A stretch of 21,257 nt of DNA from a virus: positions 1 to 21,257 of IMG/VR virus record IMGVR_UViG_3300037069_000480; one strand, written 5' to 3'. A program made the position numbers and the translations under genes. The notes under the pieces were generated by a model. That model saw only the letters and a list, made by a program, of their open reading frames with translations, did no database searches and was not told the DNA's origin. Positions 1 through 14,696 of the stretch are shown one piece after another (within the stretch, counting starts at the first letter, position 1; each line of letters begins with the position of its first letter).

Positions 1-1749
1 CGTCGCATTGATTGCATTAGCTTTGCTGCTTATTTCGCAAAATCTCATACTACATTGGTAGTAGTGATTCCATTTACGGACCTGTTCTTCATTGAATGGA
101 CCCGTAGATTTTGTGATCTTCAACCACCGAAGGTATTTCAAAATGGACTCTACGACAATCTTTATCTGCTGCGCTGGAGTTGCCCTGTGCGCAATTGGCT
201 TCATGACACTCAGCATCTATTCCATAGCATGTTTTCTGAGTACCCTAAACGCCTCTCCTTTGTCGCCGCATACGCCCTACGAAACATCCGTTACTGGAAA
301 GATGACGGTAAGACTGGGAATCTGCTGGATTATTATCGGTATAACGCTCTTGATAGCTGGGCTACTGTAAACAGCTACGTGAGTCTTATCTCGGAAGCAG
401 AACCGTATGCAATTCGGAATTACCTAATGGAGTTTCCATTGGTCTTCCCCTGTCTTACTTGCGAGATCGAAGGGATCAAGGTAGACATGGAAAGATTGGC
501 AGTCGTGAAGGCTGAGAAGGAACAGCAAGTTAACATGGAACTCGCAGAGTTTCAAACTGCTATTGCTGCACCAGCTTTCAATCCCAACTCACCACCACAG
601 AAGATGAATCTGTTCAAGGTGCTGGGACTAGGACACCTGCCGAACACTGCTAAGGCGAGCATGCTTAAAGCTCAGGCCAGCAGTCCGTTCAACAACCGTA
701 TCTTGTCGGACATGGTTAGCATTATCAAAGCTGCTAAGCTTGTCAATACCTATTTTCAACCGGAGAAATTCTGGCATGGACGTTGTTACTATAAGATTAA
801 TCCAGCAGGAACAGACACCGGAAGACTTGCAAGTTCTGAATCATCTTACTGGTGCGGCCTTCAAATCCAAAACATACCGCGAGATGATTCGGTTAAACAA
901 TGTCTTGTATCCGATCCCGGCTACTTGCTTTGTGAGATTGACAAAGCTCAAGCAGAAGCAAGATGTGTTGGATATTTGGCTGGAGAAACTGCCCTTATTG
1001 ACTTAGTTGAGGGACCACATGATTATCACTCGTACAACGCCCAACGATTCTTTGGAGTTCCTTACGAGACAATCTACTCCGATGAATTTCACAAGACTAT
1101 TAACAAGGAGTTGCGTGATCTTTCCAAGCGGACGAATCATGGTGCTAACTACAACATGGGAGCAAGTGTCATGCTTGACACCATGGGACCTAAGGATGTG
1201 GCACGAGCAAAGATTCTCCTCAAACTTTCGGGATCACTTCGGGAAGTATGCCAAATACTCTTGGACCGTTATGCAGCAACATATCCGCGAGTCAAGGGAA
1301 GCTGGTATGAGAGTATCATTATGCAGGTCAAACTTACTGGCAGACTTGTTAACCCCTTCGGACGCACGCGTATATTTTTTGGAAAACCTTGGTTGGACAA
1401 GCGGGCTCTGAATGCAGCAGTAGCACACCAGCCACAGTCTACTAGTGTTGATGCAGTGAATATCGAATTCTACGATCTGTGGCGTTGCCAGATTTACGGT
1501 AGCTTCTATCGTGACGGCAAACAAATCTTCGTGGACCTAGTCAATAAGATTCGTATCAAGGCACAGATTCATGACAGTCTGTTCTTCCAGTATCTCAAAG
1601 GAAAATCTAACGAGTGGATTCCACAGGCAGTGCGAGATACGATCATGACAACTCGCGTGAAGATCACCGATCCTCATGGAGTTACTAGAGAAATGTACAT
1701 TCCTTCCGACATTGGTTGCGGAAAAGAAAGATGGTCAGAACTGAAATGA
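1..1749 (+). CDS. DNA polymerase I, family A (3'-5' exonuclease + polymerase), 5' end outside window
   Basis: Replicates phage DNA with proofreading. The frame is open to the left edge, so the true start and the Exo I motif lie outside the window. Residues are numbered from the first ATG at 55, which cuts into the exonuclease domain. Exo II is N30/D34 and Exo III is Y96xxxD100. Polymerase motif A is D296-K-A-Q-A-E301-A-R303, with the catalytic Asp and the steric-gate Glu five residues apart as in E. coli Pol I. Motif B (O helix) is R354, K358, H362 and Y366, the same spacing as R754, K758, F762 and Y766 of Pol I, so His replaces Phe/Tyr. Motif C is H506-D507-S508, with the catalytic Asp kept and Ser in place of the usual Glu. 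No 5' nuclease domain is visible. The 3' end overlaps the next gene. The family call is very secure; the exact start is unknown. Confidence 0.96.
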   Translation, partial: RRIDCISFAAYFAKSHTTLVVVIPFTDLFFIEWTRRFCDLQPPKVFQNGLYDNLYLLRWSCPVRNWLHDTQHLFHSMFSEYPKRLSFVAAYALRNIRYWKDDGKTGNLLDYYRYNALDSWATVNSYVSLISEAEPYAIRNYLMEFPLVFPCLTCEIEGIKVDMERLAVVKAEKEQQVNMELAEFQTAIAAPAFNPNSPPQKMNLFKVLGLGHLPNTAKASMLKAQASSPFNNRILSDMVSIIKAAKLVNTYFQPEKFWHGRCYYKINPAGTDTGRLASSESSYWCGLQIQNIPRDDSVKQCLVSDPGYLLCEIDKAQAEARCVGYLAGETALIDLVEGPHDYHSYNAQRFFGVPYETIYSDEFHKTINKELRDLSKRTNHGANYNMGASVMLDTMGPKDVARAKILLKLSGSLREVCQILLDRYAATYPRVKGSWYESIIMQVKLTGRLVNPFGRTRIFFGKPWLDKRALNAAVAHQPQSTSVDAVNIEFYDLWRCQIYGSFYRDGKQIFVDLVNKIRIKAQIHDSLFFQYLKGKSNEWIPQAVRDTIMTTRVKITDPHGVTREMYIPSDIGCGKERWSELK

Positions 1750-3068
1750 CAACCAATCCACCAAAGAACCACGAACTCTTTGATCTGTACTTCAGGTATG
1801 TGGAAGATACTGAAGCGCCACTTATCTATCACCGCTGGTCCTTGTTGACCGGCGTTGGTGCTTTTCTGGGAAGACAATTCTACATCAGCAATGGGCTTGG
1901 TAGAATCTTTCCTAACATGTATACGATGCTGGTCGGGAACCCCGGCACCCGTAAGAGTTCCGCGATTAAGACAAGTCGCCGTATTCTCAGCACTGCTGGT
2001 TACTCGACATTCTCAGCGGACCGGACTACGAAAGAAAAGTTCCTACTTGACCTTGAAGGAATTACTGATGAAGACGAATACCTTGCCAAAGCGAATGGCC
2101 GCAGTAAAAAGAGAGATGAAAATCCTAGAGACATTCTTGAATCCCTGGGCCTCGTCACTGGAGATAGTGGACATGATGGAATCCCTAAAGAAGTCTTTAT
2201 CGTTGCCGACGAGTTCAATGAATTCGCAGGTACCGGTAACATTGATTTCTTATCAACCCTTGGGAGTCTCTGGGATTGGGACGATGAGAATCTCACTTAC
2301 AAGCAGCGGTTTAAAAACTCAAAATCCATTTCCATTTTTCAGCCTACGATTTCGCTGCTTGGAGGGAACACTCACACTAGTTTGCAAGCTACCTTTCCGG
2401 CTGCGGCAATTGGACAAGGTTTCCTCTCTAGACTTATTCTTGTTCATTCAGAGCCAAGCGGTAGGAAAATTACGTTTCCTAAGAAGCCGGATGAAAGCAT
2501 TATCGTACGAATGGGAGAACTCTTCAACACAATCCGCACCGAGATAAAAGGTGAGGCTAGCTTCACACCGACAGCTATCCAAGCATTAGATACAATCTAT
2601 CGGACGTGGAAAGATATTGAAGATTATCGGTTCAAGCATTACTCAACTCGTAGATTCACGCACTTGCAGAAACTCTGCATGATTTGTGCAGCTTGCAGGT
2701 TGAGTACGAAGATTGATGTTCAGGATGTGATTCTCGCTAACACCGTACTTACATTCACCGAACGAGATATGCCGAAAGCACTGGGTGAATATGGCAAGGA
2801 CCCGAACTCAGAAGCTAAGCAAAACTTGATGGCCCATTTGTACGAATGCAAGGAACCACAGAGTTTCAATCAACTCTACAAAGTTGTCCAACGGGACCTG
2901 CCGAAACAGAGCATGATGCCAGAACTAATTGCTAGTCTTATGCACGCAGGTAAGATTCAGGAATGGCCAATGGGTCATGCCAAAGGATACTTGGCTAAAC
3001 AGAAGCCAGTAGATGACCGAGCTAGTTATGTTGATTTGAAACTACTTAAGGAAGCGAGACCAAGATGA
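1731..3068 (+). CDS. Phage ATPase, DUF3987 / primase-helicase-like
   Basis: A P-loop ATPase of 445 aa, probably acting in replication as a helicase-like motor or loader next to the polymerase. Numbered from the ATG at 1731, Walker A is G69-N-P-G-T-R-K75-S76. Walker B is a hydrophobic strand ending in D160-E161. A later G-F-L-S-R stretch after a G-G-N-T segment could supply the sensor/arginine finger. The N-terminal layout (aromatic-rich helix, then Y-P/F-P-N strand into the P-loop) is that of phage DUF3987-type proteins. No primase zinc finger or TOPRIM domain is seen. Start choice: ATG 1731 has GGA eight bases upstream. ATG 1746 overlaps the polymerase stop as ATGA and is the main alternative, and an in-frame TTG lies at 1716. 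Translation is probably coupled to the polymerase gene. The ATPase call is strong; the replicative role is inferred from context. Confidence 0.85.
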   Translation: MVRTEMTTNPPKNHELFDLYFRYVEDTEAPLIYHRWSLLTGVGAFLGRQFYISNGLGRIFPNMYTMLVGNPGTRKSSAIKTSRRILSTAGYSTFSADRTTKEKFLLDLEGITDEDEYLAKANGRSKKRDENPRDILESLGLVTGDSGHDGIPKEVFIVADEFNEFAGTGNIDFLSTLGSLWDWDDENLTYKQRFKNSKSISIFQPTISLLGGNTHTSLQATFPAAAIGQGFLSRLILVHSEPSGRKITFPKKPDESIIVRMGELFNTIRTEIKGEASFTPTAIQALDTIYRTWKDIEDYRFKHYSTRRFTHLQKLCMICAACRLSTKIDVQDVILANTVLTFTERDMPKALGEYGKDPNSEAKQNLMAHLYECKEPQSFNQLYKVVQRDLPKQSMMPELIASLMHAGKIQEWPMGHAKGYLAKQKPVDDRASYVDLKLLKEARPR

Positions 3069-3260: not shown

Positions 3261-3983
3261 ATGGCGTTTAAGAATCTGGACATGCTGATTGCAGTCCTTC
3301 GCAGTGGTGGAGAGATTGGTGATTTCGTTGGACCCTTGCCAACTGACAATGATGCAGCTTGGCTGACTTACGATGAATTCGTTGGTCGACTTGCCAAGGA
3401 TATGGGTAGCCAGCAACAAGATTTGATCCACATGGCCGTGGGAATCTCAGGTGAAGCTGGTGAACTCCTTGATGCGATCAAGAAATACTGGGCCTATAAC
3501 AAGCCACTCGACTTGGAGAATGTGATCGAAGAGTTGGGAGATTTGGAATTCTACATGCAAGGCATGCGACTCCTGTGTGGCCTCACTCGCGAGCAAGTGC
3601 TGGAGGCTAACTACGCGAAACTGTCCGAGCGCTACAAGGGACTGGTGTATTCCGATGAAGCTGCGCAAACTCGTGCAGATAAGATCGAACCACAGTTGCA
3701 GATAGTTGATTGCACGAAGAAGGAATTCCAGACGCCGGAAACTCAGAAGCCAGTTTCGCTCAGCAATGAGCAAGTGGCGGCAGTGGATGAAACTGCTGGT
3801 CTGGAGAATCCAGACTTGTTTGAAAACATGCCACCGTGGTTGCAAGAACTGGTGGTGAAATTTACGCCAATGCCTATTCCAAAGGTACTGGCTTTTAACA
3901 CTGGCATGTCTGGTGTGCATGGTTCTGTACTCTTCGTAGGAGAGACTGAACCGAAGTTCTTTTACAAACCCAAGGAAGCATGA
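3261..3983 (+). CDS. MazG-like nucleoside triphosphate pyrophosphohydrolase with C-terminal extension
   Basis: A 240-aa protein. Residues about 55-130 form the MazG-like all-alpha fold, with the metal-binding pair E65-A-G-E68 and E91-L-G-D94 (the EXXE...EXXD signature), followed by an N-x-x-K-L-x-x-R-Y end typical of phage members. The family hydrolyses (d)NTPs to monophosphates. In phages this is linked to clearing aberrant nucleotides or lowering stress alarmone signals. The start is ATG 3261 because a strong GGAG lies 6 nt upstream; an in-frame GTG at 3231 lacks this. About 35 residues precede the MazG core. Roughly 100 residues follow it (from about 140), beginning with a Gln/Glu/Pro-rich linker, and I recognise no domain there. 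The function of the core is secure; the extension is unassigned. Confidence 0.88.
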   Translation: MAFKNLDMLIAVLRSGGEIGDFVGPLPTDNDAAWLTYDEFVGRLAKDMGSQQQDLIHMAVGISGEAGELLDAIKKYWAYNKPLDLENVIEELGDLEFYMQGMRLLCGLTREQVLEANYAKLSERYKGLVYSDEAAQTRADKIEPQLQIVDCTKKEFQTPETQKPVSLSNEQVAAVDETAGLENPDLFENMPPWLQELVVKFTPMPIPKVLAFNTGMSGVHGSVLFVGETEPKFFYKPKEA

Positions 3984-4207: not shown

Positions 4208-7200
4208 CTAAGGAGTAGTAACTCCCGCTGCTTCCGGACTTGGTTCAATCACTGCATTGCTCCAGTCCGGAAGTGGTTCTCCACCCATGATCTCGCTAAG
4301 TCTCTGTCCATACGGACTCTGCATCTTAGCTCGCATCTTCTCCACCACACTGACGTTTGCATCCTTCGACCACTTCTGCATACTTGCTTGGAAGTTCTCG
4401 ATGCGACCACCAGCACGTGCGTAGTCTTTCATCAGTCCATCAATCACCTCGTCTGGTGGAAACTGATTCTTGTTGAAGTAACTCTTAGCACGCTCACCCA
4501 GAGCTTCACGTCGCGCAGTATCTGCAGCTTCGTAACTCTTGAGTCGATACATGTTGTTAAGTGCGACAGCTTCATCCATCGGGCGACTGCCGAGAATTCG
4601 GCTGCTACTAGCGATGAGACTGAAGTCACTGCTCGCAGAAATCAAACTCCCCTTGCTTGTCGTAGCTTGTTGATTCACTACTTGCGCCAGTCCTGCGAGT
4701 GGACGATTGACACCATTGTGTTCCAATCCTTGCAGTAGTGATTGGCCGATCGCAGCACCGCCTGCAATGTTGCTACCAACACTGATGAGGTTCTTGACAA
4801 TCTTCGTGCTCGCGTCAATCGCAGGAATATCCAACGGATTGATTGGCAAGATGGTCATGTGCCGTGGGTTGATATCACCACGAGTGTAGAGTGCGGGAGT
4901 CTGCCCATTCATGATAAGTGGGAGCGCACTCGTAGTTCCATACATCAACCAATCTCCAACTTCCTTCCCGAGCAGATTCGGAGCGAAAGAGTACGCGTCG
5001 GTGTGTCCTTGGTTCGTAGCTGCGTTGCCAATAAGGTGAGTATTGACAGCTTCGAAGAACGGTGTTCCGTTAAGTCCAAACAAGCCCGCCTGCATTCCGA
5101 ACAAAGTTGCAACTGCCCTCTTATCCTTATTCTCAACGTGTCGAAAGAGCTGCTGCATAAGGTTGAAGGAGTATGTTTGGAACAGTGACACCGCAGAACC
5201 AAGAACCCCTTGGAAGACAATGGGCCTTTGTGATGTGATATAGTTACCTTGCACCCGGTTGGTGAAGACGCTGATATATGCATTTTGTTCCGCCAGTGAT
5301 AGCGCTCCTTTTTGTACTGCTGGTTCTGTGAGTTGTCGCATCACATCAGCAGAAATGAATCGGGTGAATTGTTCAGCTTGCTCGTTGAGAGTAATCTTAG
5401 CACCAGTCTCGAAAGCTTTGGTAATTCCATCCGAGAATACTTTATAGTCCGGACGCATGGCGATATCTTCCATCATGCTATGGACTTGTTGGAGAGTTTC
5501 ACGAATATCACCATTGGCTTTGTAGCGAGCCACGAGAGTCTTACCTTCAGGGCCCCAATAGTTCTGGATAGCTTGAGCCAGCAACTTGGTGGAACTAGGA
5601 ACACGCGTGGTACTACCGGGCATTGCAATGGTCAATGCTTCATTAAGTTTGCCAAGCAGCTCCGGATCTTTGGCCGCCAGTGTCCGGATACTAGCGAGTT
5701 CCGTACTCAGCAGGAGTGGCGTGCTGACGGTGTTAAGAACAGAGTTGAAGAAGTCAAGTCGCAGGACGGAGTTGGCCAAGAAAGCATTAGCCTTCGAGAG
5801 TCCTTCACGAATCAGATTCCGATCACGCGGTGCATTAGCTGTGATCAGTTGTTCTTGGTTCTGATAGATTCCCTTGACACCATACTTCTCCATGATGTCA
5901 TTGACTTCCTTGTAATCAATCAATCCTTTGCTAGCCTTACCAAAAGCATCATCAACGAATCGATACGCACGAACACCAAGAGCATCTACAAATTCGTTAG
6001 CTTGGTGCAAGAATTGATACTCGCTCCGCTTGCTGACGTCAAGGAATGTTTTGATGTAGTCGTCGAATGGATTGACAACTTCCGTGTTGCTCGCTCGCGC
6101 GCTTCCAGCAAATCGAGAAGTAGCCGCGTCCGTGTAGCTCCGGCCGAGAGCGCGCAGTTCAGCAAACTGTTGCGCATAGTTTGTCTCGACTGAATCTCGG
6201 ACCAGTCGCTTAGTTTGGTTCTGGTGCCAACGGAGATAGTCCTCGACAATGTTTCCTCCACGCACTTCTGGGAAAGTGTCGGCCAAGGCTCCGGATTTCC
6301 GGAGTTCCGAATTGATGCGAGGCTCGTTGATTGTGAGATTGTAGTCATACAAGTCCTTGGATTTAAACCAATCTTCGGTACCACGCTTGCTAACCACAGT
6401 GAAGTTCTTGGTATCAACCATCGCAATACGCTTCTGGAGTTCAGCTGCATCACGACCGAAGACCATAGTAACTTCACTGGTGCCAAATGCACGACCTTCA
6501 ATCGGTCGGACGAATGCGAAATGTTGGAAGTACGTGGTGTCAATTGGCGGCACATAGACAGTGTCACCTTGGTAGCTAGTGGTAGTTCCCTTTGCATTCC
6601 ACAGAACTTGACGCTTGCCCACACGCTCACCATTGATGGCAGTGTGACCAGCAAGGAATTCTACAACCGTGGGATTCTGCACATCGATATACAACTTGCG
6701 ACCATCCGCAGTTGCTTGCGAGATAGCTGCTGCCAGCTTCTCACCTTGGAGTTCTTTCAACTCTCGCAGCATCAGTTGGTTGGGATTCGCAGGATTGAAT
6801 ACGTATTTCTCATCACTGTTCCGCAAGAGATTCGTGACAACACCAAGTTCAGCTGCTGCCTTAGGATCACGTTGAATCTTGAGACTCAGTGGACCCATGA
6901 GTTCCATCATCTTTGCAGTATCTTCTTGCGCCCACAGATGTACCAACTTACCACTGGTCTGAGCAGCAAGTTCAAGTTGGTCACCGTAGTTGGCATTGGC
7001 ACTGCCGAACATGCTGGAACCAGCACCATTCGAGTCAGCCAACTTGGCTGCAGTCTGCTGGAGTTTGATAAGTTTGCTGTGACGTGCGGTACCAAGAACG
7101 GAAGCAGATGCTTCTTCGCTAGCTTGAACTGCTTGCTGGACACGATACGTCCAAGCAAGTTCACCCGTGACAAATTGCCCACCATTGTTGGACACTTGAT

Positions 7201-9394
7201 CAATGATGGCATTCCGCTTAGCTTGCCAAGTATCAGTAGGCTTGATCGTAGAAAGTTCGGTGAATTGTCCAGGAAGTTCGTAGTTGACTTGAACATTCTC
7301 ACGACGGGCGAAACTGGCCAGAGGCAAGGAAATACCCTTGTCTGCATCCGCTGAGCTAACTCGGCCAGTGACGGCACTATCGTAGTTCGGAGAGAAGCGA
7401 TTAGCAACAGTATCTTCCAACCACTTGCCATCTACGTTCAGTCGATACGCGACTTCTCGTACATCCTTGCTGACACCTTCTTCGGCAGCTTCAGCAAAGA
7501 TACGCTGGGACTCTGACAGTTTCGCACTGCGAATCATATCTGGGATTGATACGTCCGATGCAGCGTACAACTCAGAACCATCCGGGCGAAGGATAGTCAC
7601 ACGTTCGAGAGTATCAGGACTGGCAGTGCGCAAACGATCCATGAGACTGAAATCGTCAACACGGATGATATCTGGAATATTCTTATCTTCGAGCGCACCA
7701 GCCCATGCGTGACGTGCAGTGTAGTAAGTCGTGTCACCAGCTTCATTGAATCCAGAAGCCATGTTGATCACACGATTCTTCACACCTTGTGCGCTAGGAA
7801 TGATGACACCTTGGGCAGTCAATTGCAGAGTGCTCCCAGCAGGAACTTGGTCAGCGGCAGTAAGCACTGTCGAATCTGTGAATGCACCCGTGCGAGTGTT
7901 CAAGAATTGCTTGCTGCTGGTGATAGGATCATCAACACGCTTCCACAAGCTACTCTTGGGATTCACTCGGAAGGTGCCATCTGCCAGCACAGCATTGTCA
8001 TGTCCTGCTTTCCATGCAGCTGCGAGAGTATCGTAACCACCTTCTTCTGCAGGCTTACCAATCTTAGCTACGTTGGCGAATGCAGTAGCACGTTGTTCAG
8101 GTGTGCCAGTGAAGATGTATGGCTTGGAATAAGCATCATCACCGAATGGAGTAGAACTCGTGGTTGCTTTCTCCCAGTCTTTGACAGTCTTGATCTTGTC
8201 AAGTTCGTCCGCCGAGAGTGCTTTCTTGAAATACCACAAATCATCTTGCCCAAATTTCTGAGCCGTGGTGACAGCATCTACATTCTTGAGTCCGAAGAGA
8301 TAATCTCCTAGACGATCACGGATCATGGCAGGATCAGTTCCTGCTGCTCGCATACTGGAGAAATCTTCCAACACCTTGAGTGCCATTGGACCAGCAACAT
8401 CAGAGTTCGGCGAGAGTTCACGAAGTTGCTTCTCCAGATTTTGGAGTCCAACAGTCTGACTACCCGTGAGAGTACGATCAAGAACTTTAGAAATATCAGT
8501 CTTGATAGTCTTGGTCACCGGGTCCCAGCCAGCAACCTTATCCGGACGAGAAATGTGGAAGCTAAGATCAAGCAACTTGTCAGCAGCAAGAACTTCTGTA
8601 GGGAGATTCAACAGACTGTCAGTAATCGCGAATGCCTTGTCACCAGCAGTGATGTTGAAACCACTGATATCTGTGATGGCTTGGTAATCCATTGCCTTCT
8701 TGTCCAAGGCACCGACAGCTTTCTTGAAGCTACGATTAAGAATGAGTGCATCAATGCTACCACCGATGACACCACCAAAGAGTGCACCAGTCAACGCAGT
8801 CTTACCAATATCCCACCAGCTGTCATTCTCGAAGACTGGTGACTTGTACATGGTTGCAGCAACAGCAGTCTCGAAAGCTGCAGCTTGCAGAGTCTGGTCA
8901 GCAGCACCCCAAGCCATCGCACCGAGCTTATTCTTATTGATGTTCGTAAACACAGAACCACCTTCGGTTCCAAGTTCCGTCAGTGCTTTGCTGAGATACT
9001 GAGATTGCTTCGTCTGTGCGAAACCAAGTGCGCGACCAATAGCACCAGCACCCTCACCCGCACGTGCGAGATTCAGGGCTTTGACCCCCATACTTCCAGG
9101 AATAAAGCTACCTGCGATAAAGCCGGCAGTATCTAAAGTCTCCTTGTTCTCACGATACAGTGATGCCCACTTCTCGTCCATGCCGGAGAGTTCATTGGCA
9201 GTATCAATCATCGATGCATTGGCACCAAGCAGATTCGCACCACTGGCGAACGTGTTGTAGATACTACCAAGCCCGCTGATCACAGCAGCAGTAGCACCTG
9301 CAGCAGCACGATCACCAATACCCATGCCAGAAGTAACACTGGCTTGCGCTTCAACACTATCAACTGCCGGAGCAACAACATCAAAGAGAGACAT
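4208..9394 (-). CDS. Giant internal virion / DNA-ejection protein
   Basis: At 1728 aa this is the largest and last gene of the late block. It probably packs inside the virion and is ejected with the DNA, like the large internal-core proteins of podoviruses (T7 gp16 is 1318 aa). No enzymatic motif was recognised. The N-terminal ~150 residues are Ala/Gly-rich with amphipathic, membrane-active-looking helices. A Gly-rich hydrophobic stretch near residues 190-215 could insert in a membrane. The C-terminal ~350 residues hold further hydrophobic segments and then a charged helical tail with an R-P-M-D-E-A sequence resembling the ends of other podoviral internal proteins. The SD AAGGA overlaps the stop of the preceding gene (TAAGGA, 10 nt before ATG). 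Gene order 881-738-1728 mirrors three-gene ejection cassettes. The structural role is likely; exact homology is not proven here. Confidence 0.75.
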   Translation of the reverse strand: MSLFDVVAPAVDSVEAQASVTSGMGIGDRAAAGATAAVISGLGSIYNTFASGANLLGANASMIDTANELSGMDEKWASLYRENKETLDTAGFIAGSFIPGSMGVKALNLARAGEGAGAIGRALGFAQTKQSQYLSKALTELGTEGGSVFTNINKNKLGAMAWGAADQTLQAAAFETAVAATMYKSPVFENDSWWDIGKTALTGALFGGVIGGSIDALILNRSFKKAVGALDKKAMDYQAITDISGFNITAGDKAFAITDSLLNLPTEVLAADKLLDLSFHISRPDKVAGWDPVTKTIKTDISKVLDRTLTGSQTVGLQNLEKQLRELSPNSDVAGPMALKVLEDFSSMRAAGTDPAMIRDRLGDYLFGLKNVDAVTTAQKFGQDDLWYFKKALSADELDKIKTVKDWEKATTSSTPFGDDAYSKPYIFTGTPEQRATAFANVAKIGKPAEEGGYDTLAAAWKAGHDNAVLADGTFRVNPKSSLWKRVDDPITSSKQFLNTRTGAFTDSTVLTAADQVPAGSTLQLTAQGVIIPSAQGVKNRVINMASGFNEAGDTTYYTARHAWAGALEDKNIPDIIRVDDFSLMDRLRTASPDTLERVTILRPDGSELYAASDVSIPDMIRSAKLSESQRIFAEAAEEGVSKDVREVAYRLNVDGKWLEDTVANRFSPNYDSAVTGRVSSADADKGISLPLASFARRENVQVNYELPGQFTELSTIKPTDTWQAKRNAIIDQVSNNGGQFVTGELAWTYRVQQAVQASEEASASVLGTARHSKLIKLQQTAAKLADSNGAGSSMFGSANANYGDQLELAAQTSGKLVHLWAQEDTAKMMELMGPLSLKIQRDPKAAAELGVVTNLLRNSDEKYVFNPANPNQLMLRELKELQGEKLAAAISQATADGRKLYIDVQNPTVVEFLAGHTAINGERVGKRQVLWNAKGTTTSYQGDTVYVPPIDTTYFQHFAFVRPIEGRAFGTSEVTMVFGRDAAELQKRIAMVDTKNFTVVSKRGTEDWFKSKDLYDYNLTINEPRINSELRKSGALADTFPEVRGGNIVEDYLRWHQNQTKRLVRDSVETNYAQQFAELRALGRSYTDAATSRFAGSARASNTEVVNPFDDYIKTFLDVSKRSEYQFLHQANEFVDALGVRAYRFVDDAFGKASKGLIDYKEVNDIMEKYGVKGIYQNQEQLITANAPRDRNLIREGLSKANAFLANSVLRLDFFNSVLNTVSTPLLLSTELASIRTLAAKDPELLGKLNEALTIAMPGSTTRVPSSTKLLAQAIQNYWGPEGKTLVARYKANGDIRETLQQVHSMMEDIAMRPDYKVFSDGITKAFETGAKITLNEQAEQFTRFISADVMRQLTEPAVQKGALSLAEQNAYISVFTNRVQGNYITSQRPIVFQGVLGSAVSLFQTYSFNLMQQLFRHVENKDKRAVATLFGMQAGLFGLNGTPFFEAVNTHLIGNAATNQGHTDAYSFAPNLLGKEVGDWLMYGTTSALPLIMNGQTPALYTRGDINPRHMTILPINPLDIPAIDASTKIVKNLISVGSNIAGGAAIGQSLLQGLEHNGVNRPLAGLAQVVNQQATTSKGSLISASSDFSLIASSSRILGSRPMDEAVALNNMYRLKSYEAADTARREALGERAKSYFNKNQFPPDEVIDGLMKDYARAGGRIENFQASMQKWSKDANVSVVEKMRAKMQSPYGQRLSEIMGGEPLPDWSNAVIEPSPEAAGVTTP
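4212..4273. other. Tandem hairpins at the convergent gene junction
   Basis: Two inverted repeats follow the + strand stop. The first is GGAGT/ACTCC (4212-4216 with 4221-4225, 4-nt loop). The second is a perfect 10-bp repeat, CTTCCGGACT at 4231-4240 with AGTCCGGAAG at 4264-4273 (23-nt loop). Both can fold in transcripts from either strand. No T-tract follows on either side, so they are not classical intrinsic terminators. Both lie within the 3' coding end of the 1728-aa gene. They may stabilise mRNA 3' ends or help stop converging polymerases; this role is inferred. Confidence 0.45.
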
Positions 9395-14330: not shown

Positions 14331-14696
14331 TTAAGCCTGACGCTCGAAATGCGGACTGTCAATGAAACTGGATTTACCAGCTTCTACTAGTCCACGCCAG
14401 CTGCCGCCCCAGCGATTCAGCGGATCGAGAGATTCCCAATACTTACCAAGAGGTGTGATCTCTTTGGCAGTTGCAAGTCGACCTTGTACGATCAAATTCA
14501 GATCAATGGCCAGCTTCTTCAGGTGTTGCGAATCCATGGTCTTGCTTGCACCACTAGCAAAATACAACTTCTGTTGTTCTGGCGTGCGGAGTGCTTCTCC
14601 GAGACGGATACCAAAGCCAAGTTCATTGGCCTTAGTCATGAGTTTGATCACATCCAGAGAGAATGCTTCTTGATGCTGTCCGAGAGTGAGGGCCAT
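14331..14696 (-). CDS. Endolysin, M15-type peptidase (L-alanyl-D-glutamate / D,D-carboxypeptidase-like)
   Basis: A 121-aa zinc peptidase that would cleave peptidoglycan peptide stems at lysis. The M15 landmarks are S56-Q-H58-x6-D65 (two zinc ligands) and S114-P-H116-F-E (third ligand and likely general base region), with an R37-T-P-E-Q-Q segment before them, as in T5-endolysin-like enzymes of similar size (about 137 aa). No signal peptide is seen, so it needs the holin encoded just upstream. The SD AAGGA lies in the last codons of the holin gene, and only 2 nt separate that stop from this ATG. Cleavage specificity cannot be told from sequence alone. Confidence 0.88.
   Translation of the reverse strand: MALTLGQHQEAFSLDVIKLMTKANELGFGIRLGEALRTPEQQKLYFASGASKTMDSQHLKKLAIDLNLIVQGRLATAKEITPLGKYWESLDPLNRWGGSWRGLVEAGKSSFIDSPHFERQA

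What the first reader, a model, noticed from the sequence alone, without database searches (positions are those of the whole stretch)
1114..1152. Histidine at the O-helix selectivity position of the DNA polymerase
In motif B the spacing R354-K358-H362-Y366 matches R754-K758-F762-Y766 of E. coli Pol I exactly, so His sits where cellular enzymes have Phe and T7 has Tyr. This position is known to control sugar discrimination and to correlate with polymerase behaviour in phages. His is uncommon there and may alter fidelity, speed or analogue use. Motif C is also unusual (H-D-S in place of H-D-E).
Basis: partly seen in the sequence, partly recalled or inferred. Interest (0 to 1): 0.6.

Follow-up and report, generated by a model that had tools for sequence, protein, structure and literature searches.

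The report
Phage DNA polymerase with histidine-762
A virus-encoded copy of the classic family A DNA polymerase carries histidine, instead of phenylalanine, tyrosine or leucine, at the residue that grips the sugar of each incoming nucleotide, and this turns out to mark a large, old phage lineage that at least one published survey filtered out, so its effect on DNA copying has apparently never been measured.

Summary
Confirmed. The window is a podovirus contig distantly related to Pseudomonas phage 119X. It opens inside a family A DNA polymerase gene (5'-truncated) whose motif B reads R-DLS-K-RTN-H-GAN-Y. An ungapped alignment and a confident fold model (pLDDT 94, Z 34 to Bst Pol I) support His in the E. 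coli Phe762 column. It is not a quirk of this phage: all 80 nearest viral relatives have it, and a scan whose patterns avoided motif B gave 63 His against 8 non-His. His762 forms one branch of the first PolA tree without reversal; wider sampling neither proves nor rejects a single origin. His762 always goes with loss of Asn845 (202 of 202) and nearly always with Asn765; all 75 Phe/Tyr762 enzymes keep Asn845. Keown 2022 kept only Phe/Leu/Tyr762 by a filter. Relatives carry a DUF3987 protein (28 of 28 records) and mostly a Dda-like helicase (26 of 28); no DnaB helicase, RNR, tyrosine integrase or PurZ was found. HDS in motif C is ordinary (T5, Tt72, DpoZ). Most likely the imidazole keeps the sugar-positioning role in a re-tuned active site; effects on ddNTP use, speed and fidelity are inference, untested.

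The parts
1..1749 (+). family A DNA polymerase (exo + pol), 5'-truncated by the contig edge
   Evidence: Pfam PF00476 E 4.8e-24, phrog_17 E 4.9e-60, AF2 model Z 34.1 to Bst Pol I
940..963 (+). motif A, DKAQAEAR: Asp705 and Glu710 (steric gate) equivalents kept
   Evidence: alignment with E. coli PolA
1114..1152 (+). motif B / O-helix, RDLSKRTNHGANY
   Evidence: helix 369-382 (frame numbering) in the model
1138..1140 (+). His codon (CAT) in the E. coli Phe762 column
1147..1149 (+). Asn codon in the E. coli Ile765 column, co-occurs with His762
1423..1437 (+). motif 6, AHQPQ: Ala in the Asn845 column, Pro in 848, Gln849 kept
1570..1578 (+). motif C, H-D-S (Ser in the Glu883 column)
1746..3068 (+). 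DUF3987 primase-like protein, ATGA overlap with the polymerase stop
   Evidence: PF13148 E 4.2e-11, phrog_14296 DNA primase E 1.1e-71, 28 of 28 records
3261..3983 (+). MazG-like nucleotide pyrophosphohydrolase
   Evidence: PF03819 E 6.1e-6, phrog_229 E 3.8e-36; same place in phage 119X

Best explanation
This is the replicative family A DNA polymerase of a podovirus, from a deep phage PolA lineage in which residue 762 is His. SHOWN: His in the 762 column; its conservation across the lineage; co-occurrence with Asn765 and with loss of Asn845 on an otherwise intact catalytic frame (D705, E710, R754, K758, Y766, Q849, H881, D882); a shared set of replication genes. INFERRED: the imidazole packs against the deoxyribose of the incoming dNTP, as Phe or Tyr does, and presents it to the Glu710 steric gate. 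Its ring nitrogens can hydrogen-bond, so it should act more like Tyr (T7) than Phe, giving weaker exclusion of dideoxynucleotides. Asn765 and the loss of the Asn845 amide would be compensating changes around the nascent base pair.
For: His in 80/80 relatives and four isolates; 63 His, 7 Tyr, 1 Leu in a scan whose patterns avoid motif B; one branch, support 100/96, no reversal among 78 representatives with the trait columns removed; 202/202 His762 rows lack Asn845 and 75/75 Phe/Tyr762 rows have it, Asn765 in 195 His762 rows; catalytic residues kept; confident model of Pol I fold. Klenow N845A lowers selectivity (PMC3347538); the 762 residue sets dideoxy discrimination and activity (PMC6302109, PMC13228545).
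Against: No biochemical data on any His762 enzyme was found. The co-occurrence may be one shared ancestral event, so it does not by itself prove functional coupling. No distances were measured in the model. Deep branches of the tree are weakly resolved, and wider sampling needs two changes though one is not rejected.
Confidence: 0.6

Rival explanations
1. Lineage relic: His762 is an ancestral replacement (for example Tyr TAY to His CAY, one transition) with little effect of its own, kept because its neighbours co-evolved; sugar discrimination is set by Glu710 and Tyr766.
For: Single-branch distribution in the first tree; Glu710 and Tyr766 are kept in the window; Tyr762 groups lie next to the His762 branch in that tree.
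Against: No reversal to Phe, Tyr or Leu among 78 representatives with polymerase domains down to 22% identity to the window's; the position strongly affects activity in T7 (PMC13228545).
Confidence: 0.28
2. The polymerase is specialised for a modified base, as in the 2-aminoadenine (Z) phages whose DpoZ is also an unusual PolA next to nucleotide enzymes.
For: A MazG-like gene lies nearby; DpoZ also has Ser883 and lacks Asn845 (for phage J3).
Against: No adenylosuccinate synthetase/PurZ in 28 records; Tyr766, which is Phe in both DpoZ clades (PMC8599892), is kept here; 762 is His, not Leu. Other base modifications were not tested.
Confidence: 0.05
3. Misalignment: another residue occupies the 762 column.
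For: Identity to E. coli Pol I is low, about 25%, and no residue-level superposition was available.
Against: R754, K758 and Y766 fix the register without gaps in two separate alignments, and the model is a confident Pol I fold.
Confidence: 0.02

Closest known systems
DNA polymerases of Pseudomonas phage 119X (Fredfastierviridae, Jamesmcgillvirus), Polaromonas phage Tiera, EBPR podovirus 3 and Aeromonas phage P5
   Same: His762, Asn765, Ala845; polymerase next to a DUF3987-type gene
   Different: 31-39% identity to the window's polymerase; P5 has HDE in motif C
Phe762, Tyr762 and Leu762 viral PolA types (Nasko 2018, Keown 2022)
   Same: Family A catalytic frame; 762 residue follows phylogeny
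   Different: His at 762, Asn845 lost; no DnaB-type helicase or RNR found in 28 records
DpoZ of phiVC8-like phages
   Same: Family A phage polymerase, HDS motif C, no Asn845
   Different: DpoZ has Leu762 and Phe766 and comes with PurZ; here His762, Tyr766 and no PurZ in 28 records
Thermus phage Tt72 DNA polymerase
   Same: HDS in motif C; purified and active (PMC9324360)
   Different: Phe at 762

Membership tests
Family A DNA polymerase | Catalytic residues D705, E710, R754, K758, Y766, H881, D882 | tested here: met
Family A DNA polymerase | Pol I fold | tested here: met
   model pLDDT 93.9, Z 34.1 to Bst Pol I over 509 residues
Family A DNA polymerase | 3'-5' exonuclease residues | tested here: inconclusive
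   D424, Y497, D501 present in the window; D355 and E357 lie before the contig edge but are present in 80 of 80 relatives
Viral PolA 762 types (Phe, Tyr, Leu) | Phe, Tyr or Leu at 762 | tested here: not met
   His
DpoZ (2-aminoadenine polymerases) | Phe at 766, shared by both DpoZ clades | tested here: not met
   Tyr766; definition from PMC8599892
DpoZ (2-aminoadenine polymerases) | PurZ in the genome | tested here: inconclusive
   none in the window or in 27 related records, but the window is a partial genome
DpoZ (2-aminoadenine polymerases) | dZTP preference | not testable with these tools
   needs enzymology
Fredfastierviridae / Jamesmcgillvirus (phage 119X group) | Gene order polymerase-primase-MazG beside an opposite-strand structural block, and close protein identity | tested here: inconclusive
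   order matches but polymerase identity is about 33%; no genome-wide taxonomy was run

The most novel reading that the evidence does not exclude
His762, Asn765 and Ala/Ser845 together form a fourth natural solution to nucleotide selection in family A polymerases, with its own sugar discrimination (for example native acceptance of dideoxy nucleotides, perhaps pH-dependent), and mark a replisome type (PolA, DUF3987 protein, Dda-like helicase) that a Phe/Leu/Tyr filter hid.
Probability: 0.3. Interest if true: 0.72.

Novelty: new variant of a known kind. Interest (0 to 1): 0.52.

Why it matters
Residue 762 is the best-known selectivity switch of family A polymerases: it governs dideoxynucleotide acceptance and is used to classify phage replication types. 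A natural His class, conserved across divergent phages and removed by design in at least one survey, offers untested enzymes for analogue incorporation and makes the question of what this residue does in nature testable beyond Phe, Tyr and Leu. Isolated members exist (119X, Tiera, Aeromonas P5, VS-ABTNL-3, Kuura), as well as complete genomes such as Mel-JY34.

Tried and rejected
DpoZ / Z-genome reading: no PurZ in 28 records, Tyr766 kept. Motif C HDS as special: also in Phe762 enzymes, with a published Ser to Ala mutant. Temperate reading: no tyrosine integrase in 28 records; serine recombinases not searched. N-terminal domain of the window's clade as a degenerate uracil-DNA glycosylase: profile comparison not significant (probability 0.6%). 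UDG-like fusion as a mark of His762: not pursued as a marker, since the window's own clade has no recognisable UDG domain. An alignment of all His762 groups was too diverse to seed a scan. Independent origin of His762 in the fused polymerase L280: suggested by the tree (92/77), but one origin is not rejected (p 0.437). No paper found on F762H, F667H, Y526H or a His762 enzyme; Schmidt 2014 is not held, so a mention there cannot be excluded. Invariance of His within rows chosen for having His is circular and was not used as evidence.

Full report
OBSERVATION. The frame open from base 1 to 1749 encodes a family A DNA polymerase (Pfam PF00476, E 4.8e-24; phrog_17, E 4.9e-60). Bases 1114-1152 read RDLSKRTNHGANY. 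Aligned with E. coli PolA from the MG1655 genome, R, K, H and Y fall on R754, K758, F762 and Y766 without a gap. A separate HMMER alignment with Taq Pol I pairs the same His with Phe667.

WHAT THE SEQUENCE IS. The window is the whole of one virus record of 21,257 bases. Polymerase, DUF3987 primase-like protein and MazG-like protein follow each other on the + strand, with a structural block on the other strand. Pseudomonas phage 119X has the same polymerase-primase-MazG order, and Polaromonas phage Tiera a polymerase, primase and phosphohydrolase. Polymerase identity to these isolates is 31-39%.

HOW WIDE IS HIS762. All 80 IMG/VR relatives from the first scan and the four isolates have His in this column. 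One pattern of that scan was the NHG motif itself, so it was biased. A later scan used two patterns that do not touch motif B; it gave 63 His, 7 Tyr and 1 Leu among rows with a letter there. His762 is also found in Microcystis phage Mel-JY34 and Desulfofustis phage LS06-2018-MD01, in Vibrio phage vB_VspS_VS-ABTNL-3 and Caulobacter phage Kuura, and in groups with K..NHG..YGM found by a DNA pattern that demanded His762 but neither 765 nor 845. The 56 polymerases with Phe762 met in the genome-contig scan lie in contigs of bacterial genomes. These counts describe what the searches reached; they are not an unbiased frequency among all phages.

COUPLED POSITIONS. In 202 rows with His762 and a readable 845 column, Asn845 is never present (Ala 188, Ser 11, Asp 2, Gly 1). 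In 75 rows with Phe or Tyr762 it is always present. Position 765 is Asn in 195 His762 rows (His 6, Ser 3) and in only one other row. Position 848 is Pro in 38 of 41 His762 representatives and in none of the commonest Phe/Tyr states listed. The window has all three: N765, A845, P848. In E. coli Klenow fragment, N845A lowers selectivity, and N845 is suggested to help identify the correct shape of the primer-terminal base pair (PMC3347538). In the phiVC8-like polymerase of Vibrio phage J3, the column is Gly and 762 is Leu, in line with the published DpoZ residues (PMC8599892). Because the rows share ancestry, these counts are not independent events.

TREE. With columns 762, 765, 845, 848 and 883 removed, 78 His762 representatives form one side of a branch with support 100/96, without reversal, in all bootstrap trees. 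With wider sampling, including a 1406-aa fused polymerase (L280), the minimum is two changes, but a single origin is not rejected (AU p 0.437). Deep branches are poorly resolved. Polymerase domains of His762 rows go down to 22% identity to the window's.

STRUCTURE. It matches Bst Pol I at Z 34.1, rmsd 3.2 over 509 residues. The His (frame residue 380) lies in helix 369-382, where the O-helix is expected.

MECHANISM. Shown: a complete catalytic frame, with Asp705, Glu710, Arg754, Lys758, Tyr766, Gln849, His881 and Asp882 equivalents in place. From the literature: the 762 ring positions the sugar of the incoming nucleotide for the Glu710 gate; a Tyr there raises dideoxynucleotide use; in T7, Y526F halves activity and Y526L nearly abolishes it (PMC6302109, PMC13228545). 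Inferred: His keeps a planar ring against the sugar and adds a hydrogen-bonding nitrogen, so it should be closer to Tyr in dideoxy acceptance, with Asn765 and the missing Asn845 as compensating changes. Nothing here measures that. The main rival is that His762 is an ancestral replacement held in place by its neighbours, with little effect of its own.

REPLICATION GENES. In 28 records carrying this polymerase (the window plus 27 records of 39-49 kb), a DUF3987 match is found in all and an AAA_30 (Dda/RecD-like) helicase in 26; the two without it are the window itself and Mel-JY34. No DnaB_C helicase, ribonucleotide reductase, tyrosine integrase or adenylosuccinate synthetase/PurZ was found. This differs from the ring-helicase and RNR neighbours reported for Tyr762 and Phe762 types (PMC6302109). 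The records were chosen from the window's clade and the Mel-JY34 group, so this is not tested for the rest of the lineage.

LITERATURE. Nasko 2018 and Keown 2022 sort viral PolA by Phe, Tyr or Leu at 762. Keown 2022 states that only sequences with F, L or Y at 762 were kept (PMC9069017), so His762 polymerases would have been removed by design. Nasko 2018 gives 2,095 peptides in the text but lists 2,045 as Leu, Tyr or Phe (PMC6302109); the gap of 50 may be other residues or a misprint. I found no paper on a native His762 enzyme, but the library is incomplete and Schmidt 2014 is not held.

MOTIF C. HDS is not remarkable: it occurs in T5-like (Bf23), SPO1-like (BSP18) and Microbacterium phage polymerases with Phe762. 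In Tt72 polymerase, Ser616 to Ala keeps 76% activity (PMC9324360).

VERDICT. The better statement is that the window holds a member of a His762 family A polymerase lineage, a new variant of a known kind, with a clear and untested biochemical prediction.

Noticed in passing
L087:1565-4045, L089:1164-3596, L304:2229-4841, L318:1456-3162, L319:3977-5086: Several His762 polymerases outside the window's clade carry an N-terminal uracil-DNA-glycosylase-superfamily domain fused to the exonuclease/polymerase. The N-terminal domain of the window's own clade has no recognisable family.
   Followed up: partly
L318:1456-4590; L319:3977-7381; L288, L307, L314, L317, L275, L293, L308: Polymerase gene split over two ORFs: in Vibrio phage VS-ABTNL-3 with a 184-aa ORF of no known family between the halves, in Caulobacter phage Kuura between exonuclease and polymerase parts, and in several IMG/VR contigs. 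Intron, intein or true split enzyme not decided.
   Followed up: no
L280:922-5142: A 1406-aa protein joining D5_N / DUF3854 / DUF5906 primase-helicase-like domains to a His762 family A polymerase; possible separate origin of His762, not resolved.
   Followed up: partly
L136, L249-L255, L257-L259: A group of short His762 polymerases, about 500-560 aa; no exonuclease domain was reported by Pfam for L250.
   Followed up: no
window 4208-9394 (-): A 1728-aa opposite-strand protein with no Pfam match, at the place of the giant hypothetical protein of phages 119X, Tiera and P5.
   Followed up: no
window 14331-14696 (-): M15-type peptidase, probable endolysin (PF13539 E 5.2e-6, phrog_465 E 4e-16).
   Followed up: no
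L131-L135: His762 polymerases on contigs binned in assemblies named Coxiella, Anaerolineae, Ponticaulis and Thermoprotei archaeon; probably phage contigs, so the host labels need checking.
   Followed up: no
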